This document shows positions 27,186 through 39,081 of a stretch of DNA of 64,000 nucleotides, piece after piece. Below the pieces are notes generated by a model. It did no database searches. It saw only the letters and a list, made by a program, of their open reading frames with translations, and was not told the DNA's origin. Positions within the stretch are counted from its first letter, which is position 1; each line of letters starts with the position of its first letter. The position numbers and the translations under genes were made by a program. This DNA is from Georgenia yuyongxinii (lineage in GTDB: Bacteria > Actinomycetota > Actinomycetes > Actinomycetales > Actinomycetaceae): assembly GCF_006352065.1 (NCBI RefSeq), contig NZ_CP040915.1:186001-250000 (forward strand), given 5' to 3'.

Positions 27186-27883
27186 GCTCGCCCCAGCACC
27201 GCGCGACGACGCGGACGTCCCGGCTCGGGCGGGACGTGAGCCACCTTGTGCCGCCGGCCGGCGAGGTGCCCGGGTTGGTGACACTGACCGAGCGGGACCG
27301 GGCGCTGTGGGAGTGGGCGGCCGGGTACCTGCACGTGCGCGACAACGACGCGCACACCCTGTACTCCTACGGCTTGGCGACGGCGCTCGTGGCGCGGACG
27401 CCGTCTGCGCGGCCGGAGATCGTGCTGCCCGCGATCCTGCTGCACGACACCGGCTGGTCCACCGTGCCCGAGGAGGACATCCTCGAGGCCATCGCACCGC
27501 AGGCGCGGCGGCCCGAGCTCGTGCGCGCACATGAGATCGCCGGGGCACGCATCGCCCGGGAGGTCCTGAGCGAGCTCGGCCACGATGAGGCGGACGTCGA
27601 GGAGATTGTCGAGATCATCGACGGCCACGACAGCCGCGCCGAGGCGCTCTCGGTAAACGATGCCTGCGTCAAAGACGCCGACAAGCTGTGGCGGATCACG
27701 CCGCACGGGCTGGCGACGGTACAGCGCTGGTTCGGCCTCGACGCCGACGAGGCGCTGCGGATCGTGAGCGCTCGCACCCATGAGCACCTGCACACCGAGG
27801 CCGGCCGGGCGATGGCCGGGGCTATGGGCGCACTGGCCTCAATCGAGCTGACCGCTGAGTGTGCGGTACTCCGCGCAGAATGA
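27182..27883 (+). CDS. HD-domain phosphohydrolase-like protein 2
   Basis: 233-residue paralogue of the HD protein encoded before the aldehyde dehydrogenase. It shows the same pattern: NDAHTLYSYG, LLHDTGWS, RAHEIAG, EIIDGHDSRA and KDADKLWRIT. It is the last gene of the P450/dikinase operon, joined by a 4-base overlap. Two different HD proteins in one operon suggest two phosphorylated substrates, or a heteromer. Function is not established. Confidence 0.82.
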   Translation: MSSPQHRATTRTSRLGRDVSHLVPPAGEVPGLVTLTERDRALWEWAAGYLHVRDNDAHTLYSYGLATALVARTPSARPEIVLPAILLHDTGWSTVPEEDILEAIAPQARRPELVRAHEIAGARIAREVLSELGHDEADVEEIVEIIDGHDSRAEALSVNDACVKDADKLWRITPHGLATVQRWFGLDADEALRIVSARTHEHLHTEAGRAMAGAMGALASIELTAECAVLRAE

Positions 27884-28363
27884 GCCGCACCCCCGACTGG
27901 GACGTCGAGGTGCCTGGACACGGGCTCCCCGGTCCCGAGGCCCACGGCGGGGGCCCGCAACAAGGGCCGCCCAGGTAGTTGAAATGGGGCACTAGGTTCG
28001 CGGGTAGTCTCGGGATGTGTTGCCGATGATTCGCAAGGTCAAGACCGCCTCGGGGCGACGACTGTGCAGATCGTGGACAGGAGTGGCGGACGCGGCCGAT
28101 CGTGGCTCATGTCGGCTCGGCCCACGACCTTCTTGCCGGCCAGTTCGTTACCGAGGAGTACGGCGACCGCGACCCCGCTCGCAGCCACGACGATGCCACC
28201 AATGCTGATGGGTATGAGTGGGAGCGGCATATCTGTTCCTGAGCCTCGCTTCGTTGAGGGCCCCAGCGTCGACCGGGGACTCCAGTGACTCTAGGGATCA
28301 CGTACGCGGCGTTTGAGGATCGCCCCGAAGACGCGTAACGCACGCTCCAGGACCCAAACACAT
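27884..28363. other. Intergenic left edge of the defence island
   Basis: 480 bases between the end of the catabolic operon and the stop of the Z1 gene. Base composition falls from the GC-rich operon to more mixed DNA at about 27970, marking the likely island edge. One small minus-strand ORF with a membrane helix is listed separately. No tRNA, direct repeat or integrase was found. No confident terminator was found for either flanking gene. Confidence 0.5.
28039..28230 (-). CDS. Small predicted membrane protein
   Basis: 63-residue ORF with one clear hydrophobic segment (IPISIGGIVVAASGVAVAVL, about residues 6-25) followed by a basic, Pro-containing tail. AGGA lies 6 bases before the ATG. It overlaps a similar-sized plus-strand ORF without such features. 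It is downstream of the Z1 gene on the same strand, at the island edge. I do not recognise it; it may be an accessory membrane peptide of the island or a remnant. Confidence 0.4.
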   Translation of the reverse strand: MPLPLIPISIGGIVVAASGVAVAVLLGNELAGKKVVGRADMSHDRPRPPLLSTICTVVAPRRS

Positions 28364-30574
28364 TTACCCGGCTAGCTCTGCCTGAAGAATCACCCTGTCG
28401 CTGAGATCTGTCGGGATGTGGATCGCCACGGAGGTCGCACGAGATCGGGTGCCCGGGCCAACCTCTACGGCGAGCTCATGCACCTGGACCGTGACAGTGT
28501 CGCCCGCCGCGAAACCCCGGTCGCCCCGGTAGGTGCTTCCGTCAGCCGGGTCAGGACCCTGCATCAAGTTCCCGACCTCGAGCGCTTCGACGTCGTCAAT
28601 CAGGTTCAAGTCCCAACCTGCACCCGCGAGCACCGGACGAGAGGCGACTGACGGACCACGATCGCGAGTGGCTCCGCCGTTCATGAAAACGACGTCAACC
28701 GGGATCTCCCCCTCGACGCTGCCGAGCGCGAGGAGGCTCGAGTAGAGGACGTTCTTCTCATCCGCTGCCGCACGCCAGTCTGCGAGGACTTCGGCCACTT
28801 CGCCCCACGTGCTTCGGACAACCGTGTTGCGGGCATGTGTGCGGTGATCCCGAGGGTCATCTGTCGCTGAGGCGCGAAGCCCGTCAAGGCGAGACCTACC
28901 TTCGGCGGTAGGACCGGTCGGCTCACCGTAGACATGGGTCTGCGTGAGCACCCATCCGCTTAGCCTAAAGTCGTCGACGTCCAGACTGATCACCGCACGG
29001 CGCGTCGGGTTCAGGCTCGAGTCGAGCAGGATCGTCCGTCGCCACGTCGACAGCTCTCGCCCGTTGGTGTCGAGCTCAGACAGAGCGCCCCTCATCGCGT
29101 TCTCGTGTCTGACGTACTTTCGGAACACGTCCGCCGTATCCGGGTTCATCCAGGCGCGCAGCAGGTCTAGGTACGACCGCTTGTACCCGAAGAAGCGTCC
29201 GCGCTGCTGGACTGTGTCAGCGTTGCGGACGCCTGGCCCCCTCGGCATGTACGTCACCGCCAGATTTTCCACGGTGAAGCCACGGTCAAGCTTGTTGCCC
29301 CCGATGACGATCCATCCGGGCGCCTGCGTCCACTCGCTCGAGGTGATCTCGTTGCCCTGGGCACTGTTGACCACGCGAACTCTGACCGCTTCGAGATACC
29401 CATCGTCGGCAAGCATCTCGATGAGCTCTTCGAGCGAGACTGACGCACCCTCGACGACATTGCCGCCGGTGGTTGCGAGGTCGTCGTATGCAGGAGAGAA
29501 CACTTCGGTTGTGACCTGATCCCTGAGCACCTCGTCACCATCGGTGAGCGCGACAGTCAGCCGGCCCATGATGCCTCGCACCCATGCGTCGTAGGCGCGG
29601 TGCAGGTCGGTCCCTGAGGACGGGTGGATCAGCATCGTGAGAGGTCGGGGTCTTCCTCGGAGCTGCGCGACAACCATCGCGAGGAGGTAGGTCGCGATCG
29701 CGCGCTCGAGCGACTCGGGCGGACTGATCGACTCGTCATCGAGAGCGTCGTCGTTGATCTCTCGCACAAACCCGGCGTAGGACTCGTCGAACAGGTCCGC
29801 ACCTCCGACGTAACCCTCGCCGGGGGTTAGGACAGAGACCGTCCGCGGCGAAAGGGTGTCCTCAAGAGCGATCAGGAGCGGAGCCTGCGGTGTCGCCGTA
29901 TACAGGACGTACGAGTGGTTCGCTGCGGTCTCCCGGAGAAGACGGATCGCGCGATATGTCGAGCTCTCTGCGCCGCCTGGCCTCGCGACGTTGAGGCCAG
30001 CCTGGTCTGCTTCGTCGTCGATGAACAGGACTGGCGCGCCCGGGACCTGACCGAGGACATCTGCCAGCACAGATCGGGCACGTCGAAGGCTTGCGTGGTT
30101 CTTGAGGACGACGGCGACGGTCGTGACCCGGCTCCTCGTCCTGCGTTCGTCCTGCCACCGCTGAGCTCGCGCGAGGATCTCCCCTGCGTTCACCGGCCGC
30201 AGGTCATTGACCGGATACCAACTCGGGAGGCGGCCGTCACCGTCCATGGCAAGGTCCCTGACCAGCCGCTCGTAGGTTTGATCACGCAGGTTGGTCTTTG
30301 TCCCTGCAAGCACGACGACGAGCGGGAAACCGTTGTCGCGGGCAGTGGCGATAAGACCGGTGAAGGAGAGGGTCTTGCCGCTCTGTACGGCACCCACCAC
30401 CAGTTCAGCCGAGGTGCCATCGTTGTCCCACTCCGGCGCGCGGCAGCGTCCGAGTATACGGAGGGTCTCCTGCTCGACGCGTGACTGCTCGTGCCGGCTC
30501 AAGTTCGTGCGGCCGAGCAGGTCCTGCAACTTCTGCCCCGATTGAGGCGTCCACAGGTTCGCATTTCTGGTCAT
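28364..30574 (-). CDS. Z1-domain ATPase/helicase-like protein of a MORC-type R-M system
   Basis: 736-residue Z1-domain protein, a superfamily II-like ATPase found in restriction systems with MORC/MutL ATPases. Seen: Walker A VVGAVQSGKTLSFTGLIA, a DEAD-like Walker B VLFIDDEADQAG, motif III-like YTATPQAPLL, the Z1 region GWIVIGGNKLDRGFTVENLA and the arginine-finger-like TVQQRGRFFGYKRSYLDL. ATG chosen where the preceding ATPase gene ends with a 4-base overlap; the open frame upstream is shadow. Its job is presumably ATP-driven DNA remodelling or translocation during restriction. Product length is near the family norm. Confidence 0.88.
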   Translation of the reverse strand: MTRNANLWTPQSGQKLQDLLGRTNLSRHEQSRVEQETLRILGRCRAPEWDNDGTSAELVVGAVQSGKTLSFTGLIATARDNGFPLVVVLAGTKTNLRDQTYERLVRDLAMDGDGRLPSWYPVNDLRPVNAGEILARAQRWQDERRTRSRVTTVAVVLKNHASLRRARSVLADVLGQVPGAPVLFIDDEADQAGLNVARPGGAESSTYRAIRLLRETAANHSYVLYTATPQAPLLIALEDTLSPRTVSVLTPGEGYVGGADLFDESYAGFVREINDDALDDESISPPESLERAIATYLLAMVVAQLRGRPRPLTMLIHPSSGTDLHRAYDAWVRGIMGRLTVALTDGDEVLRDQVTTEVFSPAYDDLATTGGNVVEGASVSLEELIEMLADDGYLEAVRVRVVNSAQGNEITSSEWTQAPGWIVIGGNKLDRGFTVENLAVTYMPRGPGVRNADTVQQRGRFFGYKRSYLDLLRAWMNPDTADVFRKYVRHENAMRGALSELDTNGRELSTWRRTILLDSSLNPTRRAVISLDVDDFRLSGWVLTQTHVYGEPTGPTAEGRSRLDGLRASATDDPRDHRTHARNTVVRSTWGEVAEVLADWRAAADEKNVLYSSLLALGSVEGEIPVDVVFMNGGATRDRGPSVASRPVLAGAGWDLNLIDDVEALEVGNLMQGPDPADGSTYRGDRGFAAGDTVTVQVHELAVEVGPGTRSRATSVAIHIPTDLSDRVILQAELAG

Positions 30575-32121
30575 GCCGTCGCCCTCTTCGCGAGCGGGCC
30601 GGTGAGAATTCGGTTGAGCTCCGCGATCAGGTAGCGCGGTTCTCGCGCTCCACTGCGTTCCGCCTTGATCTGGGCCAGAGCGATAGCGACAGCGAGCCGG
30701 AGCACGGGCTCCAGGTCCATGCCCGGCAGGTAGGCGAATGACTGCGTAAAAGTGTGGGACCGGTTGACCGTGACCGTCCACGCTGAGTCCTCCTGGAGGA
30801 CCCGTATCCAATGGTTCTTGTCCGCTGGGTTGTCGATGACACTGATGGTCAGACGTTCGCCCAGGACTTCCCACTCGGTGTCGCCAAGCATCACCGACTC
30901 TGCAACTGGTGGCGACGCCGGGGCCGCACCGATCGTCTCAGTCTCATCCCCGGGATCAGCCGCCTCGGGGATCGGCTGGACGACCGCCTGGACGACCTGC
31001 TCCACAATTCCACGCACAGTGCTCTGGATGCCGCGTCCGCGCTCGGTCGTTCGGTGGTTGCGCGCCATCTTGAGCAGCGGCAGCGGTTCCGCGTCGAGCG
31101 CCTGCCCGAGCTTCTCCAGGAACTCGTCCTCTTCTTCGTCATGCCAGACGAGGGAGTCTTTTGTATGGGTCACTTTGACCTGCGAGACGTCGAGCTCTCC
31201 GACGAGCCGCTGGGACTCGAAGGAGTTGCCACGCCCAAAGACCCGAGCCGGCTTGTACCCGTCGCTGTCTCGCGCCGCACCTCCTGCACCCTGTACGACC
31301 TTGTCTCGGTACAAGAGAGCGAAACCGGCTGCAGCGGTGTCGCCCTTGGCGAAGAGCCCGGCCCAGCCCATGATCATCCGGCCCGAGTCGAGCACGATCG
31401 AGACGTCTTTCCTCCACATCTCTGGCGGGGCGTCGGGCGTGCTCCATCGCGGGGCGACCAGGAACTCAGGGGCCGAGTAGGTGAGCTTACGTCCAGCGAC
31501 GACGATCTCCACCCGCTCGTCGGCAATGAACCTCCGGTAAATCGACGAAAGGTAGTCACGGATCTTGCCGAGCGTGCGCCCGGTGGGTGCTGGCTGGTTG
31601 AGGTCTGTGAGGACGAGCGTCGTCCCGTGCTCCTCTGCCCGTGCCGGTGTCGTCACGACAGCGATGTGATCTGACTTCTCCTCGACGATGGTCGGGATGT
31701 CGAACGTGACCTCACGGCGGACATCCTCTCCGAGCGCTGTCGTGGTCACGACGAAGTGCTTGGCGTACCAGCTCGCGGCGCTCTTCATACCAATGCCGAA
31801 CTGTGAGAGCCCAGACGCGTCGGCTGGCGGGGCAGCCGGCGTGAATGCGCGACCGATGTCCTCGGTGTAGATACCCGCGGCGTTGTCGGCGACCGAGATT
31901 CGTCCGCCCGAGCGGTCGATCTCGATGTCGATGTTGAGCCTGGCTACTCCGCCGCCCGCAAGGGCGAGGCGATCCTGGTTTGCGCGCCAGGACTGCAGGG
32001 AGTTGTCGACGAACTCGCCGATAGCGTACCAAGCCCTGTAGTTCATCGAGGGGAACAACGCGAGCATTCCGACACCGGGCCGTACTTCGACCTGTTTGAC
32101 CTGTTCGACCTGCAGACTCAT
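30571..32121 (-). CDS. MORC/MutL-like GHKL ATPase of the R-M system
   Basis: 516-residue ATPase with a GHKL (Hsp90/MutL-type) fold. Seen: N-box GEFVDNSLQSW, G1 box VADNAAGIY, G2 box FGIGMKSAASWYAKHF and a Thr in TLVLTDLN. The C-terminal 200 residues (after about 330) have no motif I recognise. Such ATPases clamp DNA or act as switches and are paired with Z1 proteins in predicted restriction systems. ATG chosen at MSLQVEQ, with GGGAG upstream; an earlier ATG lacks a ribosome site. It overlaps the Z1 start by 4 bases and is separated from vsr by 160 bases that hold hairpins. Confidence 0.88.
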   Translation of the reverse strand: MSLQVEQVKQVEVRPGVGMLALFPSMNYRAWYAIGEFVDNSLQSWRANQDRLALAGGGVARLNIDIEIDRSGGRISVADNAAGIYTEDIGRAFTPAAPPADASGLSQFGIGMKSAASWYAKHFVVTTTALGEDVRREVTFDIPTIVEEKSDHIAVVTTPARAEEHGTTLVLTDLNQPAPTGRTLGKIRDYLSSIYRRFIADERVEIVVAGRKLTYSAPEFLVAPRWSTPDAPPEMWRKDVSIVLDSGRMIMGWAGLFAKGDTAAAGFALLYRDKVVQGAGGAARDSDGYKPARVFGRGNSFESQRLVGELDVSQVKVTHTKDSLVWHDEEEDEFLEKLGQALDAEPLPLLKMARNHRTTERGRGIQSTVRGIVEQVVQAVVQPIPEAADPGDETETIGAAPASPPVAESVMLGDTEWEVLGERLTISVIDNPADKNHWIRVLQEDSAWTVTVNRSHTFTQSFAYLPGMDLEPVLRLAVAIALAQIKAERSGAREPRYLIAELNRILTGPLAKRATA

Positions 32122-32234
32122 TCGACTCCCTTGGCTCCGGGAGAAGGCTAACGGCGAACCGAACACTGGGGGGCGTACCTACGGTCATGTCGCAATGCGT
32201 GCACGGGGTCGGCAGGATGGAAGCGACCGTCCAA

Positions 32235-32262
32235 GGGTGCGAAGGGAGCACCCCTGTAGGGG
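32235..32262 (-). promoter_or_regulatory. Two competing hairpins between vsr and the GHKL ATPase gene
   Basis: GGGTGC (32235-32240) pairs with GCACCC (32248-32253), and CCCC (32251-32254) pairs with GGGG (32259-32262) around TGTA. The two structures share bases and cannot form together. They lie in the only large gap of the minus-strand defence genes. They may form an attenuator or a terminator separating methyltransferase-vsr from the ATPase pair. Low confidence. Confidence 0.3.
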
Positions 32263-32281
32263 CGCACGCTTCACGCGGGCT

Positions 32282-32722
32282 TCAGCGAATGGCAGCCTCA
32301 ACTCGATCCGCCGCGGAGTCAGGCGACTCGTGCTCCCAGACGCGCACAACGGTCCAGGCGAGCTCGCCGAGCAGTCGGTCGGTGTCTCGGTCGCGAGCGT
32401 GGTTTGCCGAGAGCTTAGACTCCCACCACTCGCTATTCGATCGCGGCCGAGTGCCGTGGTTTGGGCAGCCGTGCCAGAAACATCCGTCGACGAAAACCGC
32501 CACTCTTGCCTTCGTGAACGCGATGTCGATCGTCCGCCGGCGCTGGCCCGGGATCGGGTAGGCCACCCGGTACCGCAGGCCGCGGGAGTGGAGCTCTCGG
32601 CGCAGCGCCATCTCGGCAGCGGTGTCACGCCGCTTGGCAGTGCTCATCCGCCGCGAGAGAGCCGGCGAGGATGAGCCCGGGTGGGCCGGGACATGCTGCG
32701 GTACTGGCGGTTGGAATGTCAC
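32282..32722 (-). CDS. vsr: Very-short-patch mismatch repair endonuclease
   Basis: 146-residue Vsr endonuclease, which nicks DNA at T:G mismatches that arise when 5-methylcytosine deaminates. Seen: SRRMSTAKRRDTAAEMALRR, the catalytic region TIDIAFTKARVAVFVDGCFW and zinc-site residues in HGCPNHG and WESKL. It lies 15 bases after the C5-methyltransferase gene, the usual pairing. The start is a GTG with only a weak ribosome site; the internal Met26 lies within the conserved Vsr core and is not a better start. In MORC-type systems a Vsr-like enzyme is a known companion. Confidence 0.93.
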   Translation of the reverse strand: MTFQPPVPQHVPAHPGSSSPALSRRMSTAKRRDTAAEMALRRELHSRGLRYRVAYPIPGQRRRTIDIAFTKARVAVFVDGCFWHGCPNHGTRPRSNSEWWESKLSANHARDRDTDRLLGELAWTVVRVWEHESPDSAADRVEAAIR

Positions 32723-32737
32723 CGCCCCATCGTGCCG

Positions 32738-34201
32738 TCACACAGCGATCGACAGCATCGACTCCGCGAAACGGCTCTGCCCCTCCGCCACGACGCGCTC
32801 CAGGCGGTCGTCTGGGCTCTTAGGTGCGTCGTCGAGGATCGCTTTGAGCAGGTCGCGGCCCTTATCGGTTGTCTGCAGGATCGCCCGGTCGCGCTCGGCA
32901 TGCGCGCGCAGCATGTTCCATACCGCGCCAATATTCACTCCGTTGCCCAGCTGCTTGTAGGTGGCAGCGTCGGTCTGAGGGCCGAAGTCGAAGTTGTCGG
33001 GAAAGCCCTGCAAGCGGGCAGCTTCTTTAGTGGACAGCCGCCGGCGGTACTTCCCGATGATCGAGGTCTGTGTGATCGCCACGAGCGCGGGCAGATGTGT
33101 GGGGCGCTTCGCGCGGATGCCGGACGGGCGAAGCTGAAGCACACACTCCCACAAGGTCGGAGTCTGCTGGGCCTGCCATTCGAGCTTGCGGCGCGAGGGG
33201 GGGAAGGATGCGACGTCGTGGCGTGACAGCCACTTGTCGAGTTGCGCCTTGTACTGCGTGTAGAAGTGGGCGTTCTTCACAAGGAAGGTCTGCTTCCAGG
33301 CCGGCACGTCCTCCCAGTTCTCCGGAAGTTCGAGCTGACGCCGATAGGGCATCCGCGCGACGCCTACAGCCCAGGCCTCGAGCTCGTCGATTTTGATCCA
33401 CCGGTCGACCCAGATCGGGAACCCCGGCAGGGTCGCGTCCCGGGCGGTGTTGGTGTTCGCGCGGCGCACCAGAGGCCACATCGTCGTCACGAAGTCGTCC
33501 CACGCGTCGATCCACGCGATCTCGTCACCTGAGAGCTCCGTCCCGCGCACTGCACCTTCAGTAAGGGGAAGGTCGGTGGCCAGATCCCACTCTTCACCGC
33601 CGCGCAGCGAGAAGTTCGCTAGTGGCGGCTTGGCTACGACTCCGTCGAGCACGCCATCGGGGTCATAGGTCGCAGTGATGAACACTCGCTCCCGCACCTG
33701 TGGGCGGCCGCCGCGCTCGAGCGGGAGGAGGTGCGGGGAGAACACTGCCGGGGTGTCGGAGACCCGGTATCCCTCGTCGCGGAGGGTCTGGATGATGACA
33801 TCCCACTCATGCTTGTGGCGCGGGCCAGCAAGGTTGCGCACATTCTCGAGCATCACGACCGTCGGGTGGTGCGCCTGGATGATCTTCAGGATGTTCCAGT
33901 AGAGCGTGCCGCGCGTCTCCTCCATGCCACGTTGGGCGCCGGACTTCGAGAACGGCTGGCACGGGAACCCGGCCGCGAGGACGTCGTGGGCTGGCACACT
34001 CATCGCAACGTCGTTCGCGTCGCGGGTGATGTCGCCAAGCGGGAAGTGACCCCAGTTGCGCTCGTAGACCTTCGCTGCGGCCTCGTCGATCTCGACCGAG
34101 TAGACGCACTCGCCGCCGAAAGCCTCAAGGGCGGCAGCGAACCCGCCGATGCCGGCGAACAGGTCGATGTACCTGAACGGCGCGCTCGTCGTCGTACTCA
34201 T
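32738..34201 (-). CDS. dcm: C5-cytosine DNA methyltransferase
   Basis: 487-residue DNA cytosine-5 methyltransferase. Seen in order: motif I YIDLFAGIGGFAAALEAF, motif IV GFPCQPFSKSG with the catalytic Cys, motif VI ENVRNL, motif VIII RPQVRERVFI, a long variable target-recognition region (about 200-400), motif IX-like RRLSTKEAARLQGFP and motif X YKQLGNGVN. The recognition sequence cannot be read from the protein. It modifies host DNA so that the island's nuclease spares it. ATG chosen with GGGAG 5 bases upstream. A 9-bp inverted repeat lies just upstream of the start. Confidence 0.94.
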   Translation of the reverse strand: MSTTTSAPFRYIDLFAGIGGFAAALEAFGGECVYSVEIDEAAAKVYERNWGHFPLGDITRDANDVAMSVPAHDVLAAGFPCQPFSKSGAQRGMEETRGTLYWNILKIIQAHHPTVVMLENVRNLAGPRHKHEWDVIIQTLRDEGYRVSDTPAVFSPHLLPLERGGRPQVRERVFITATYDPDGVLDGVVAKPPLANFSLRGGEEWDLATDLPLTEGAVRGTELSGDEIAWIDAWDDFVTTMWPLVRRANTNTARDATLPGFPIWVDRWIKIDELEAWAVGVARMPYRRQLELPENWEDVPAWKQTFLVKNAHFYTQYKAQLDKWLSRHDVASFPPSRRKLEWQAQQTPTLWECVLQLRPSGIRAKRPTHLPALVAITQTSIIGKYRRRLSTKEAARLQGFPDNFDFGPQTDAATYKQLGNGVNIGAVWNMLRAHAERDRAILQTTDKGRDLLKAILDDAPKSPDDRLERVVAEGQSRFAESMLSIAV

Positions 34202-34220
34202 CTCGTCTCCCACCCTCGAA

Positions 34221-34251
34221 GCTTGCCAGCTGGACGGCTCCCCTGGCAAGC
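34221..34251. promoter_or_regulatory. 9-bp inverted repeat upstream of the methyltransferase
   Basis: GCTTGCCAG (34221-34229) and CTGGCAAGC (34243-34251) are perfect reverse complements with a 13-base spacer. They lie 20-50 bases before the methyltransferase start, in the 193-base gap to the divergent small-protein gene. It may be an operator (methyltransferase genes are often autoregulated) or a 5' leader hairpin. CCAGCTGG at 34226-34233 is a second small palindrome inside it. Confidence 0.4.
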
Positions 34252-34394
34252 CAGCACGAGGCGGCCGCCGAAAGAGCACTAAGGACAACCTAGTTCGGGC
34301 GTCTGACATCGCCGGACGTGGCGTCTTGCGGGCGAGTGTTCAACGCTCAGACCCCTCGCAAGTGGGCTGCAATCGCCGTGCTAAGAATCCTCGT

Positions 34395-34793
34395 GTGACC
34401 GACGACGAGTGCATCCACGGCATGACGGCCGCCTGGTGTGGGCTTTGCATCAAGGTCGAGCCCGTGCCAACGGTCCGCTCAGGCTCGTATGGCTTCCACG
34501 GGGGCGAAACCAAGCAAGACGTCATCGACGAGATCCACGACCTCCTCGGCATGCGGCGTCAGGCCGTCTCCAACGGCTCCTCACTTCCCGCTTCGATGTT
34601 CCGCATCGCGTGCGAGCGACTGGGACTGCCGTACCGGAACATGCCCGACGCATGTGAGCGCATCGTCAAACGTGCTGGCCTGCGCTGGAACCCCGATTTC
34701 GACTCGCGCGCGACGAGGTCGGGTGGCGGCTCGACGGTCACGCTTGAAGGCGCACAGGCGATGCGTGACGCGCTACGCGCGCTTCTGTCGTAG
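34395..34793 (+). CDS. Small Cys/His-rich protein of the defence island
   Basis: 132-residue protein with CIHGMTAAWCGLC near the N-terminus (Cys, His and a CxxC), a likely zinc site, then a helical region with MFRIACERLGLPYRNM and a Ser/Gly linker. I do not recognise the family. It is divergent from the methyltransferase and on the same strand as the nuclease gene 104 bases downstream, with a hairpin between. It may be a DNA-binding helper or a regulator of the system. The GTG start is chosen because the motif begins four codons later; longer frames upstream run into the methyltransferase region. Confidence 0.55.
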   Translation: MTDDECIHGMTAAWCGLCIKVEPVPTVRSGSYGFHGGETKQDVIDEIHDLLGMRRQAVSNGSSLPASMFRIACERLGLPYRNMPDACERIVKRAGLRWNPDFDSRATRSGGGSTVTLEGAQAMRDALRALLS

Positions 34794-34810
34794 CCGGTCC
34801 GCTACGACAG
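34785..34810 (+). terminator. 10-bp hairpin terminator overlapping the stop codon
   Basis: CTGTCGTAGC (34785-34794) and GCTACGACAG (34801-34810) are exact reverse complements with a 6-base loop. The stop codon lies within the left arm. This probably ends the small-protein transcript, so the nuclease gene needs its own promoter or depends on read-through. Confidence 0.65.
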
Positions 34811-34897
34811 GTACGGCATGATCGGGACTATGGAATCCGGCTTGGCCCTCTCACAGACACACGCCCTGCACCTTGTGCTCGCGACCAGGGACGCCGA

Positions 34898-36121
34898 GTG
34901 GGTTCGATAAGCGTCGATCAGATCCGCGCGGATGGCACCCTGATCCAGGATGTCGACACCACGCTTAGCCCGAGTCAAAAAGTCAACCTTCTCCTCGACG
35001 CCCTGCCTGGGGCGACGGTCGAGAACTACGCCGGCGTACGGCTCGTTCGATTCGCGGACCAAGTCCTCCTGTATAAGCAGGTCACGCACCTAGGGAATCC
35101 TTGGCCTGGCTTCAAGAAGCGTATCCAGATCCCAAAGGAATGGCTCGACGTCGAGCGTCAGGCTCGTGCGGACGGCCTGATACCACGGTTCGTCGGCATC
35201 TACCACTACGACGGGGTGACCATCTTCGTCGACTTCGACGTCGAGACCTACGTCCAACGCAGGGCCAACAACTCGGCTGCACATGTCGCAACCAACGATC
35301 TGTTCCAGGCCCAGACTGCTGGGCAGTTCTCGCGCGTCGACCGCAACGGCAACCGCGTGTCGAGCATCCGAGCTGATGAGTTCGCGACATATCTGCTGGC
35401 GGGTTACGAGGAGAAGAACCCGCACATCGACGTCTTCGACCGCTTCAGCGATGCGTTCCTCGACGGGGTCCGGATCGACGGGCTGACCGCCGTGCAGGAG
35501 ATGTACGCCGCCGACTGGCCCGACAGGTTCCAGAACGAGTGGGCGGGCTTCTACGTCGAGTTCCGACTAAGCAACTACCTCACACAGCACAACCTGCATG
35601 AACTGCTCGCGGTCCAGAAGGAGAAGCGCAAAGGCGAGTACGACTACGACCTGCGGTTTCTCAAGAACGGCGCGCTTGAACACTACGGCGATCTGAAGGC
35701 CTCGAACATCGCTGTCAACGACTCACCTGGAAACGACGCTGAGAACTTCTTCCGCTGCCTCTCGGAGACGGGTCGCTTTTGGTACGTGATCTTCGAGCAC
35801 GAAACATGGCACGGGCGCGACAACAGCAACGTGGCTACAATCGCGTGGAACGACTGGCGCCGGTCGGCCGGACACATTGGACATAGCAAGGTCTATGACC
35901 CCCTGTCCTATGCCGGGCGTTTCAAGGAGGCCGTGCGGTTCGTCGGAGTGAAGATCCTCGAGGTAAACCAAGCGAACGCCGACAAGGTGCTCGGGCACTT
36001 CCAGAAGGACTTCAGGCAGCCCGATGGCAAGCCCCGTAAGGGCAAGGTCATGATCAAGAAGAAGGACATCGACAACTTCCTGATCTACACGAAGTCGCTC
36101 GAGGTGTCCAAGGTCATGTAG
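34898..36121 (+). CDS. Predicted PD-(D/E)XK restriction endonuclease
   Basis: 407-residue protein with a probable PD-(D/E)XK nuclease core at about 248-267: YDYDLRFLKNGALEHYGDLK, where an Asp and the DLK triplet fit the catalytic pattern. The region around it predicts alternating strands and helices. No other domain is recognised. Its place next to the methyltransferase, Vsr, GHKL ATPase and Z1 genes makes it the likely cleaving subunit. The start is a GTG; the ribosome site is weak. The gene is AT-richer than the flanking chromosome, like the rest of the island. Confidence 0.72.
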   Translation: MGSISVDQIRADGTLIQDVDTTLSPSQKVNLLLDALPGATVENYAGVRLVRFADQVLLYKQVTHLGNPWPGFKKRIQIPKEWLDVERQARADGLIPRFVGIYHYDGVTIFVDFDVETYVQRRANNSAAHVATNDLFQAQTAGQFSRVDRNGNRVSSIRADEFATYLLAGYEEKNPHIDVFDRFSDAFLDGVRIDGLTAVQEMYAADWPDRFQNEWAGFYVEFRLSNYLTQHNLHELLAVQKEKRKGEYDYDLRFLKNGALEHYGDLKASNIAVNDSPGNDAENFFRCLSETGRFWYVIFEHETWHGRDNSNVATIAWNDWRRSAGHIGHSKVYDPLSYAGRFKEAVRFVGVKILEVNQANADKVLGHFQKDFRQPDGKPRKGKVMIKKKDIDNFLIYTKSLEVSKVM

Positions 36122-36160
36122 TGCGCATCGCCTGACCGTCGCGTCTGAGTGTAGTAGCAG

Positions 36161-36316
36161 TCACCCAACCTCGACACCCCGGAGATGCGCGAGACCCTCA
36201 CCTGGCTGCGTGGCCTCGTGGAGGACGGCGTCGTGCCGCAGGACTTCATGGCCCCGACATTCGACCCCATGTCTGAGTTCCGCGCCGGACGCATCGCGAT
36301 CCTGGGCGGAGCGATG
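36161..36316 (+). pseudogene. Fragment of an extracellular sugar-binding protein
   Basis: An open frame with NLDTPEMRETLTWLRGLVED and MSEFRAGRIAILGGA matches the middle of family-1 ABC sugar-binding proteins, where a helix is followed by the FRAGRIAM-like stretch. Both ends are missing: the island begins just upstream, and downstream the frame runs straight into permease sequence. It has no signal peptide or start of its own and is judged a remnant. Confidence 0.7.
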
Positions 36317-36768
36317 GCCGAGCGTCTGGACCTGGTCAACACCTACACCGGGATGATCCTGACCCACGTCGGCTTCATGCTCCCCTTCGCGGTCCTCGTG
36401 CTCCACGGCTACTTCCAGAACAGCTGCCCCAAGGAGCTCGAGGAGTCCGCCTACGTCGACGGCTGCTCCCACTTCGGAGCCTTCCTCCGCGTGTTCCTGC
36501 CCGTCTCTCGGGCTGGGATCCTGTCCATCGTCTGCGTGGTGTTCCTGCAGATCTGGAACGACTTCATCTGGGCCAGCACCCTGCTCTACCAGGGCGAGAA
36601 GGCGATGCTGCAGGTGGGGCTGCGGTCGTTCTTCGGCCAGGGCGGCGCGGTGGAGTTCATGGGCCCGTTCATGGCGGCCTGCGTGCTGACCATGCTGCCC
36701 GCCGTCGTCCTGTTCGTCTTCGTCCAGCGGTACATGGGTCTCCGGCCTGGGCAGCGGGGCGCTCAAGG
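36317..36768 (+). pseudogene. C-terminal part of an ABC sugar permease (MalG type)
   Basis: About 150 residues of a MalG-type permease: LVNTYTGMILTHVGFMLPFA, then the ATPase-contact loop SAYVDGCSHFGAFLRVFLPV, and the final helices through YMGLRPGQRG. The N-terminal helices are missing. It is fused in frame to a binding-protein fragment, so a deletion removed the end of the binding protein, the other permease and the start of this one. The frame runs on into the 3' end of the convergent molybdoenzyme gene. Confidence 0.72.
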
Positions 36769-39081
36769 GGTAGTGGGGAGGATCTCCGGAGGGGTGAAGC
36801 ACCCGACCGTGGGAACCGGCCCGGTCCAGGGCTCGAGCTCGACGAGCGTGGAGCCGGGCGAGGGCCCCTGGGCGAGCCGCGACGTGGCCCGGTCCGACGT
36901 GAGGACATTGGGGTTCCCGTGGCGCTCCAGCGAACCCGGCACCCCCGGGTCCTCCGGATCGAACCATGCGCCCGTGGAGAGCACCACGACCCCGGGCCGG
37001 ACGTCGGTGGTGAGCCGCGCCCCGGCCAGGCAGGCGCCCCGGCCGTTGAACAGGCGCACCACCTGGCCGTCCGTGATGCCCCGGGCGCGAGCGTCGTCGG
37101 GGTGGATGAGCACGGGTTCGCGATCGCGCACCTCGGCGGCGCGGCTGTGCGCCGCGTGGTTCAGCTGGCTGTGCAGCCGGGTCCGCGGCTGGTTGGAGAC
37201 CAGGTGCAGCCCGGGTCCGCGCGCCGCCACCGCGCCGAGCCACTCCTCCGGCTCCAGCCACACCGGATGTCCGGGGCAGTCGTCGTACCCGAACGACGCG
37301 ACCGTCGCCGAGAAGATCTCGATCCGCCCCGACGGCGTCTCGAACGGGTGCGCCCGCGGGTCCGCGCGCAGCAGCGCGAAGGACCGGTCCGGCACGGGGG
37401 CCGGCTCGGGCGTGCTCGCCACCCCGGCCGACCAGAACGTCTCGAAGTCCGGCAATGCGACGCCCTCCGCGGCCAGGCCGTCCCGGGTGCGGGCGTACAG
37501 GTGACGCACCCACTGCGCGGCACTGCGCCCCTTGGTGAACTCCTGCCCGTAACCCAGCCGGTCGGCCAGGGCGGCGAAGGCCTCGTGGTCGGTCGGGACG
37601 CCCGGAGGCGGGTCGAGCACGCGGTGCATGGCCGTGACGGTCAGGTCCATCATCCCGACGGCGAAGTCCTCCCGCTCCAGCGGCGTCGCCACGGGCAGGA
37701 CGACGTCGCTGAACCGGGCGAGCGGGTTCCACCACGATTCGTGGCTGACCACGGTGTCGGGCCGCTGCCAGGCGCGGACCAACCGGTTGAGGTCCTGCTG
37801 GTGGTGGAACGGGTTGCCACCCGCCCAGTAGACGAGCCGGACGTGTGGGTAGGTGCGCCGCTCGCCGTTGAAGTCGTAGGTCTGCCCTGGTGAGAGCAGC
37901 ATGTCGGAGATCCGGGCCACGGGGATGGACTCGGTGACCTTGTTCGGTCCTTGCGGGAGCGAGGCGACCTGGTGCCGCCGTGGCCGCACGCCCATCTGCG
38001 AGATCCCCAGGCCGCCGGCGTACCCGCCGCCGGGGCGGCCCAGGGAGCCGGACATCGCAGAGAGCACGATGGCCATCCAGTGCACCTGCTCGCCGTGGCG
38101 CATGCGCTGGAGCGACCAGCTGACGTTGATGGTGGTCCGTCGCGTGGCGATCCGCGCCGCGAGCGCGGTGAGGACACCGGCGTCGACCCCACAGATGGCC
38201 CCAGCCCACCGCGCGTCCTTCGCCACGCCGTCGACGGCGCCGCCGAGGTAGCGCTCGAACCGGTCCCAGCCCACGCAGCAGCGGGTGAGGAAGTCGACGT
38301 CGTGCCGGCCCGTCCGCACGAGCTCGTGCGCGAGACCGAGCATGAGCGCGACGTCGGTGCCCGGCCGCGGCGCGATCCACTCCGCACCGAGGAAGTCGGC
38401 GGCGTCGGTGCGCAACGGAGAGATGCTGACGAACGCCACGCCGGCGTCCTTGCACCGACGCTGCCATTCTGGCTGCATGTGCCGGCCCACGCCGCCCGCG
38501 TTGGCGAAGGCGTTCTTGGGTGCGAGACCGCCGAAGCTCACCACGAGCTCGCCATCGCCGGCGATCTCGGGCCACTGAACGCCGCGCTCGGCGAACGCCC
38601 AGGAGTCACCGCCGATAACGTGCGGGAGGATCACCTCCATGGCGCCGGCGCTGTAGGAGTTCACGGAGTCGGTGTATCCGCCGCCCATGCGCAGGAACCG
38701 GTGGATCTGGCTCTGCGGGTGGTGGAACCTGCCGGCGCTGCCCCAGCCGTACGAGCCGCCGTAGACGGCGGCGTCGCCGTGCTCGACGCGCACGCGTGCC
38801 AGCTCGCGGGCCACAAGGTCGTAGGCGGTGTCCCAGTCGACCGCGACGAACGGTTCCGTGCCACGGGCGCCGCCTGCGGGGCCGGGGCCGCGCTCGAGCC
38901 AGGCCCGCCGCACCATCGGCCGGGTGATCCGTAGCGGGCCACGATGGGCGTCGATCAGCCCGTCGCCGAGCCGGTTGGGGGAGGCGTCCTCGCCCACCGG
39001 CGTCAGGGTGACGGCGTCGCCCGAGCCCCGCACCTCGTAGCTGCCGAAGTGGGTGGCCGTGCGAAGGTGCTGAGTGCTCAT
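36763..39081 (-). CDS. Molybdopterin oxidoreductase, BisC/TMAO-reductase type
   Basis: 772-residue molybdenum enzyme of the DMSO reductase family, close to the biotin-sulfoxide/TMAO reductase branch that reduces S- and N-oxides. Seen: GGSYGWGSAGRFHHPQSQIH, NSYSAGA with the Ser expected to bind Mo, WSLQRMRHGEQ, YWAGGNPFHHQQDL and the C-terminal molybdopterin domain with HGNPNVLT. There is no N-terminal Cys motif for a 4Fe-4S cluster and no Tat signal, so it is probably a soluble cytoplasmic enzyme. It is the last gene of the polyamine operon, 30 bases after the aldehyde dehydrogenase; its role there is unclear. Confidence 0.88.
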   Translation of the reverse strand: MSTQHLRTATHFGSYEVRGSGDAVTLTPVGEDASPNRLGDGLIDAHRGPLRITRPMVRRAWLERGPGPAGGARGTEPFVAVDWDTAYDLVARELARVRVEHGDAAVYGGSYGWGSAGRFHHPQSQIHRFLRMGGGYTDSVNSYSAGAMEVILPHVIGGDSWAFAERGVQWPEIAGDGELVVSFGGLAPKNAFANAGGVGRHMQPEWQRRCKDAGVAFVSISPLRTDAADFLGAEWIAPRPGTDVALMLGLAHELVRTGRHDVDFLTRCCVGWDRFERYLGGAVDGVAKDARWAGAICGVDAGVLTALAARIATRRTTINVSWSLQRMRHGEQVHWMAIVLSAMSGSLGRPGGGYAGGLGISQMGVRPRRHQVASLPQGPNKVTESIPVARISDMLLSPGQTYDFNGERRTYPHVRLVYWAGGNPFHHQQDLNRLVRAWQRPDTVVSHESWWNPLARFSDVVLPVATPLEREDFAVGMMDLTVTAMHRVLDPPPGVPTDHEAFAALADRLGYGQEFTKGRSAAQWVRHLYARTRDGLAAEGVALPDFETFWSAGVASTPEPAPVPDRSFALLRADPRAHPFETPSGRIEIFSATVASFGYDDCPGHPVWLEPEEWLGAVAARGPGLHLVSNQPRTRLHSQLNHAAHSRAAEVRDREPVLIHPDDARARGITDGQVVRLFNGRGACLAGARLTTDVRPGVVVLSTGAWFDPEDPGVPGSLERHGNPNVLTSDRATSRLAQGPSPGSTLVELEPWTGPVPTVGCFTPPEILPTTP

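What the first reader, a model, noticed from the sequence alone, without database searches (positions are those of the whole stretch)
28364..36121. MORC-Z1 restriction-modification island
Seen: Z1 ATPase, GHKL (MORC/MutL-like) ATPase, Vsr, C5-methyltransferase, small Cys-rich protein and a PD-(D/E)XK-like nuclease, in DNA less GC-rich than its surroundings. Known: restriction systems combining MORC-like ATPases, Z1 proteins, methyltransferases and Vsr-like nucleases were predicted by Iyer, Abhiman and Aravind (2008). How the two ATPases and the nucleases work together is still poorly understood. No integrase or tRNA is present.
Basis: partly seen in the sequence, partly recalled or inferred. 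Interest (0 to 1): 0.7.

Follow-up and report, generated by a model that had tools for sequence, protein, structure and literature searches.

The report
Two restriction modules sharing one methyltransferase
A horizontally acquired 9-kb island in a high-GC actinobacterium carries one DNA-marking enzyme beside two different predicted DNA-attack modules (a restriction nuclease and a MORC-Z1 ATPase pair that lacks its usual nuclease gene): an unusual mix of known anti-phage parts rather than a new kind of system.

Summary
The stretch encodes Z1 (DEAD-type helicase plus Z1 domain), a MORC/paraMORC-like GHKL ATPase, a Vsr-like nuclease, a C5-cytosine methyltransferase, a small Cys-containing protein and a 407-aa PD-(D/E)XK nuclease with an MTaX1 domain. 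All six frames are intact, at 0.64 G+C against 0.73 outside. The Iyer 2008 interpretation is right in kind but incomplete. (1) The nuclease that normally follows Z1 (DUF4420) is missing; the nearest MORC/Z1 relative also lacks it. (2) The MTaX1 nuclease belongs to a simpler restriction-modification pair that occurs with this methyltransferase clade, without MORC-Z1 nearby, in 13 of 15 loci. (3) Methyltransferase, MORC and Z1 trees show that MORC-Z1 and the MTaX1 pair were brought together at least twice. (4) The island spans about 27,852-36,779, a spot where same-genus genomes carry a different ~12 kb; a broken transposase marks its left edge. Best reading: a composite restriction-modification locus in which one methyltransferase licenses two effector modules. 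Whether MORC-Z1 drives the MTaX1 nuclease (as the Z1 protein of CglI drives its nuclease) or acts separately is open. New variant of a known kind; function untested.

The parts
27852..36779 (.). whole island: segment absent at this spot in two same-genus genomes
   Evidence: left flank 85-87% identical up to 27,845/27,851 in G1090 and G1095, right flank 88% identical from 36,780 in G1090; the relatives carry a different ~12 kb there
27978..28123 (+). remnant of the start of a DDE transposase (insertion-sequence end), frameshifted
   Evidence: 77% over 148 bp to an intact 506-aa transposase gene in same-genus genome G446; that protein matches PF01609 E=1.7e-16
28364..30574 (-). Z1 protein: SF2/DEAD-type ATPase with Z1 domain; start overlaps the MORC stop
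   Evidence: PF10593 E=1.4e-34; GAVQSGKT, DDEADQ, TATPQ and DTVQQRGRFFGYK regions conserved in the 8-sequence alignment
30571..32166 (-). MORC/paraMORC-like GHKL ATPase (internal ATG start possible)
   Evidence: PF13589 E=2.4e-12; N, G1 and G2 box residues invariant in 6 sequences
32282..32722 (-). Vsr-like PD-(D/E)XK nuclease
   Evidence: TIGR00632 above curated cut-off; D66, C81, H84, C86, H89 invariant in 11 sequences, D79 where the recalled E. coli Vsr sequence has His
32738..34201 (-). C5-cytosine DNA methyltransferase
   Evidence: PF00145 E=2.1e-70; motifs DLFAGIGG, GFPCQPFS, ENV, RERVF, GNGV; PADLOC DruM PDLC00034 627 bits
34202..34394 (.). divergent intergenic region between the methyltransferase operon and the Cys/REase operon
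   Evidence: gene starts; position only, promoters not tested
34395..34793 (+). small protein: N-terminal CxHG..CxxC stretch plus helical domain also found at the N-terminus of an HNH nuclease
   Evidence: 38% over 94 residues to the HNH_2 protein in L016; alignment; model pLDDT 77.8, no credible PDB match
34898..36121 (+). restriction nuclease: N-terminal MTaX1 domain (Hjc-like fold, catalytic residues apparently lost) and C-terminal PD-(D/E)XK domain (E221, D251, D265-L-K267)
   Evidence: PF20296, PADLOC REase_II; 15-sequence alignment; model pLDDT 84.9; SwaI/HincII for 172-394 and Hjc for 23-171
36185..36779 (+). fused remnant of a sugar ABC transporter (end of a binding protein joined to the last part of a permease)
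   Evidence: permease part PF00528 E=4.9e-13, residues 55-184, NCBIfam permeases matched from about position 124 on; binding-protein part read by eye

Best explanation
A composite restriction-modification locus. One C5-cytosine methyltransferase marks the host genome and so protects it from two effector modules acquired separately. Module 1 (Cys protein plus MTaX1/PD-(D/E)XK nuclease) is a type II-like restriction enzyme: the MTaX1 domain, an Hjc-like fold that seems to have lost its catalytic residues, probably reads the target and its methylation state, and the C-terminal PD-(D/E)XK domain cuts unmethylated DNA. Module 2 (MORC-like GHKL ATPase plus Z1 ATPase) is the ATP-dependent module of the Iyer type: Z1 probably hydrolyses ATP and moves on or remodels unmethylated DNA, as the Z1 protein of CglI is thought to do, while the GHKL protein acts as an ATP-gated clamp. 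Its usual DUF4420 nuclease is absent, so cutting must come from Vsr, the MTaX1 nuclease or an unlinked enzyme. Shown: gene content, intact motifs, separate histories of the modules, island boundaries. Inferred: methylation, target reading, cleavage, ATP-driven steps and phage defence.
For: Domains and motifs. The MTaX1 nuclease lies near the same methyltransferase clade in all 15 loci seen; 13 of them, including Bacteroidales, show no MORC or Z1 nearby. MORC-Z1 lies beside a C5 methyltransferase in all nine loci examined, the window included. The same methyltransferase clade also pairs with HNH nucleases and ~1000-aa Z1 proteins. In the methyltransferase tree the window's gene is sister to L038 (MTaX1 nuclease, no MORC-Z1), and L017, the other locus with both modules, falls in a different MTaX1-only clade, both with strong support. 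In the MORC and Z1 trees the window groups with L016 (DUF4420-less), not with L017 (98/99 and 99/99). Hence at least two independent joinings. Island boundaries and absence of MORC in 8 other genomes of the genus. CglI Z1-protein biochemistry: PMC4267653. MTaX1 as modified-DNA discriminator: PMC10853773.
Against: No activity, methylation or phage data exist. The target sequence of the methyltransferase is unknown, so it is not shown that both modules are blocked by the same mark. Only two loci carry both modules. The Hjc match of MTaX1 is moderate (Z 8.4 over 111 residues) and no PDB sequence matches the family.
Confidence: 0.52

Rival explanations
1. One coupled machine: the MTaX1 nuclease has taken over the job of the missing DUF4420 nuclease, so MORC and Z1 power an ATP-dependent nuclease, like the N and R proteins of CglI/NgoAVII with a GHKL clamp added.
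For: DUF4420 is absent although it follows Z1 in L015, L017, L018, L077, L088, L090 and L091. In L017 the MTaX1 nuclease is the last gene of a MORC-Z1-DUF4420-REase run, 7 bp after DUF4420. CglI needs its Z1 protein to cut.
Against: Close MTaX1 relatives (68-74% identical) have no MORC-Z1 nearby, so the nuclease should work alone. In the window it is in a divergent operon. L016, the other DUF4420-less locus, has an HNH enzyme instead.
Confidence: 0.28
2. MORC-Z1 is a leftover: the module lost its nuclease and no longer restricts; the methyltransferase and MTaX1 nuclease do all the work.
For: The core nuclease gene is missing, and L015 keeps only a short match to the MTaX1 nuclease (residues 191-221), so modules in such loci may decay.
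Against: MORC and Z1 are full length with all ATPase motifs intact and overlapping start/stop codons. They form a clade with L016, which also lacks DUF4420, so absence of DUF4420 looks like a stable lineage trait.
Confidence: 0.15
3. The locus is mainly a methylation and mismatch-repair unit (methyltransferase plus Vsr) with restriction genes inactive.
For: Vsr next to a C5 methyltransferase is the Dcm-Vsr arrangement.
Against: The nuclease keeps all PD-(D/E)XK residues that are invariant in 15 sequences, and Vsr travels with many restriction systems of this clade.
Confidence: 0.05

Closest known systems
MORC/paraMORC-Z1 restriction-modification operons (Iyer, Abhiman and Aravind 2008, PMC2292703, third type)
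   Same: GHKL ATPase with conserved ATP-binding motifs, Z1-type SF2 helicase with a DTxxQxuRhFG signature, C5 methyltransferase, Vsr
   Different: no RE-fold DUF4420 gene; extra MTaX1/PD-(D/E)XK nuclease and Cys protein; S5 motif of the GHKL protein has K in place of the MORC R
CglI and NgoAVII restriction-modification systems (PMC4267653)
   Same: C5 methyltransferase with a DEAD-Z1 ATPase and a separate nuclease gene
   Different: their nuclease is PLD-B3, here MTaX1/PD-(D/E)XK; they are described as three genes, without a GHKL protein or Vsr
MZA (mzaABCDE, Gao et al. 2020) and the Z1-DUF4420-methyltransferase systems of PMC9523054
   Same: Z1 protein similar to MzaC; GHKL protein family weakly like MzaB in two relatives
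   Different: far below the NCBI MzaC cut-off (133 of 1500 bits); no DUF4420, AIPR or sigma factor among the six proteins; has a methyltransferase and Vsr
MTaX1-type type II restriction-modification pairs (PADLOC REase_II PDLC03409)
   Same: methyltransferase plus MTaX1 nuclease close together, often with Vsr; nuclease up to 75% identical (Nocardioides ungokensis, L002)
   Different: MORC-Z1 added

Membership tests
MORC-Z1 RM operon (Iyer 2008, type 3) | GHKL ATPase with all ATP-binding motifs | tested here: met
   invariant E51, N55, D94, G98, G124/G126 and K128 in 6 sequences
MORC-Z1 RM operon (Iyer 2008, type 3) | MORC signature GhXhhpXXRhl in the S5 domain | tested here: not met
   GFALLYRDKVV here; K instead of R and an aromatic instead of a polar residue in all 6 sequences; may be a paraMORC, so not filed as strict MORC
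MORC-Z1 RM operon (Iyer 2008, type 3) | SF2 helicase with C-terminal domain bearing DThhQXuRhFG (Z1) | tested here: met
   DTVQQRGRFFG; one departure, the fourth position is Q in nearly all relatives
MORC-Z1 RM operon (Iyer 2008, type 3) | additional RE-fold nuclease gene (taken here as DUF4420) | tested here: not met
   no match to three DUF4420 proteins in window 20,000-44,000
MORC-Z1 RM operon (Iyer 2008, type 3) | frequent C5 methyltransferase and Vsr | tested here: met
CglI/NgoAVII type RM | PLD nuclease with B3 DNA-binding domain | tested here: not met
   nuclease is MTaX1 plus PD-(D/E)XK
CglI/NgoAVII type RM | DEAD-Z1 ATPase required for cleavage | not testable with these tools
   ATPase present with motifs; dependence needs biochemistry
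MZA system | MzaC equivalog score, with MzaD (DUF4420) and MzaE | tested here: not met
   133.5 of 1500 bits; no MzaD or MzaE hit among the six proteins
Druantia | DruE helicase together with DruM methyltransferase | tested here: not met
   methyltransferase matches a DruM model (627 bits) but none of the six proteins matches DruE
MTaX1-type type II RM | MTaX1 nuclease with intact PD-(D/E)XK site next to a C5 methyltransferase | tested here: met
MTaX1-type type II RM | sequence-specific cleavage blocked by the methyltransferase | not testable with these tools
   needs enzyme assays

The most novel reading that the evidence does not exclude
A nuclease swap: in this DUF4420-less lineage the MORC-Z1 motor pair has been coupled to whatever restriction nuclease accompanies the methyltransferase (MTaX1/PD-(D/E)XK here, HNH in L016), turning an ordinary ATP-independent type II enzyme into an ATP-dependent, clamp-assisted one.
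Probability: 0.25. Interest if true: 0.65.

Novelty: new variant of a known kind. Interest (0 to 1): 0.45.

Why it matters
How bacterial MORC-like ATPases and Z1 helicases cooperate with nucleases is still unsolved, and MORC proteins are conserved in animals and plants. This locus and its relatives form a natural set of swaps (same methyltransferase clade with MTaX1 nuclease only, MORC-Z1 only, or both; with and without DUF4420) that allows the contribution of each part to be tested. It also suggests that MTaX1, a domain proposed to read DNA modification, is a retired Holliday-resolvase-like nuclease fold.

Tried and rejected
A DUF4420 remnant downstream of Z1: none found. Target-site repeats at the island ends: only a 9-bp chance match. 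PDB sequence relatives of the nuclease and of Z1: none; MORC-like protein only weak MutL. Fold of the Cys protein: no credible match. Relatives of the nuclease on plasmids: none. MORC relatives in viral contigs: only distant partial matches, not pursued. More DUF4420-less MORC-Z1 loci: none found in further draws of 396 phylum, 258 order and 101 family genomes (partly overlapping earlier draws), so that lineage rests on two loci. Druantia and MZA were considered and rejected. The organism's name was not determined.

Full report
Observation. Six intact genes fill 28,364-36,121: Z1, MORC-like GHKL ATPase, Vsr and C5 methyltransferase on the minus strand in one run, and a small Cys-containing protein and an MTaX1/PD-(D/E)XK nuclease on the plus strand. 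Composition differs from the flanks (G+C 0.64 against 0.73; GC3 0.76-0.84 against 0.90-0.96).

Borders. Two genomes of the same genus, G1090 and G1095, keep the left flank at 85-87% identity up to window 27,845/27,851. G1090 keeps the right flank at 88% from 36,780 on. Between these points they share a different segment of about 12 kb with a TetR regulator and a response regulator. The RM genes therefore sit in a spot with variable cargo between an HD-domain gene and a molybdopterin oxidoreductase gene. In the relatives the two flanks lie on different contigs; that they are joined is inferred from the shared segment bridging them. None of the other eight genomes of the genus has the MORC gene. 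Inside the left border is a frameshifted stub of a DDE transposase, and inside the right border a fused remnant of a sugar ABC transporter. No tRNA was found, and no integrase was seen in the island.

Parts. Z1 keeps Walker A, DDEADQ, TATPQ and the DTVQQRGRFFGYK signature. The GHKL protein keeps all ATP-binding residues, but its S5 motif reads GFALLYRDKVV, with K where the published MORC motif has R, as in its five relatives (motif from PMC2292703). Whether it is a MORC or a paraMORC is therefore open. Vsr keeps D66, C81, H84, C86 and H89; the residue that I recall as catalytic His64 in E. coli Vsr is Asp in all 11 sequences. The nuclease has E221, D251 and D265-L-K267 invariant in 15 sequences from Actinomycetota and Bacteroidota. 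Its model (pLDDT 84.9) matches SwaI and HincII over residues 172-394 (Z 8.4 and 8.1) and archaeal Hjc over 23-171 (Z 8.4, rmsd 3.0 over 111 residues). At the positions that line up by eye with the Hjc active site the N-terminal part has no conserved acidic residues, so MTaX1 is probably a nuclease fold turned DNA reader. Aravind and colleagues suggested modified-DNA discrimination for MTaX1 (PMC10853773). The Cys protein has a helical domain also found N-terminal to an HNH nuclease in L016.

Comparative anatomy. The MTaX1 nuclease lies near the same methyltransferase clade in all 15 loci seen; only the window and L017 also have MORC-Z1. The methyltransferase clade occurs in 24 of 395 sampled class genomes, next to MTaX1 nucleases, MORC-Z1(-DUF4420), ~1000-aa Z1 proteins with a ~362-aa partner, HNH enzymes or other genes. 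MORC-Z1 is usually followed by DUF4420 (L015, L017, L018, L077, L088, L090, L091); the window and L016 lack it. A Rathayibacter plasmid shows the plain operon dcm-MORC-Z1-PD-(D/E)XK. The 'MTaX1 only' label rests on 10-21 kb around each locus; genome-wide absence of MORC was tested only for some of them (for example G158 and G249).

History. In the methyltransferase tree the window is sister to L038, then L003, both MTaX1-only; L017 lies inside another MTaX1-only clade. In the MORC and Z1 trees the window groups with L016 and not with L017. The two modules were therefore combined at least twice. The DUF4420-less lineage rests on two loci with long branches.

Mechanism. Most likely one methyl mark protects against two effectors. 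CglI shows that a Z1 ATPase can drive a nuclease on unmethylated DNA (PMC4267653), which makes the coupled-machine rival plausible; the missing DUF4420 and the L017 operon order favour it, and the many MORC-free MTaX1 loci and the divergent operon count against it. No step has been tested at the bench.

Known or new. The kind is known (Iyer 2008; MZA; PMC9523054). The combination, without the core DUF4420 nuclease and with a second restriction module, is a variant that I did not find described in the papers searched.

Noticed in passing
L093 (G000:C1 around 1138556-1139701, outside the window): The same genome has a second C5 methyltransferase flanked by a GIY-YIG-like protein (GVYAIYY...YVGK, resembling Eco29kI-type nucleases by eye) and another Vsr-like gene.
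   Followed up: partly
window 36185-36779: A binding-protein end is joined in frame to a truncated sugar ABC permease, a deletion scar of a transporter operon just inside the right border of the island.
   Followed up: partly
L015:12847-13598 (-): Between MORC-Z1-DUF4420 and Vsr/methyltransferase lies a broken stretch matching residues 191-221 of the MTaX1 nuclease, perhaps a decayed third case of both modules together.
   Followed up: partly
L015:3274-5280 and L018:12759-14570: A PglW-like kinase-related gene follows DUF4420 in two MORC-Z1 loci (PADLOC PglW E=7.5e-180 for L015), a possible further component.
   Followed up: no
L078:5783-9899, L080:9504-13584: The same methyltransferase clade sits beside ~1000-aa Z1 proteins followed by a ~362-aa protein without a clear Pfam family, a possible unclassified CglI-like nuclease pair.
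   Followed up: no
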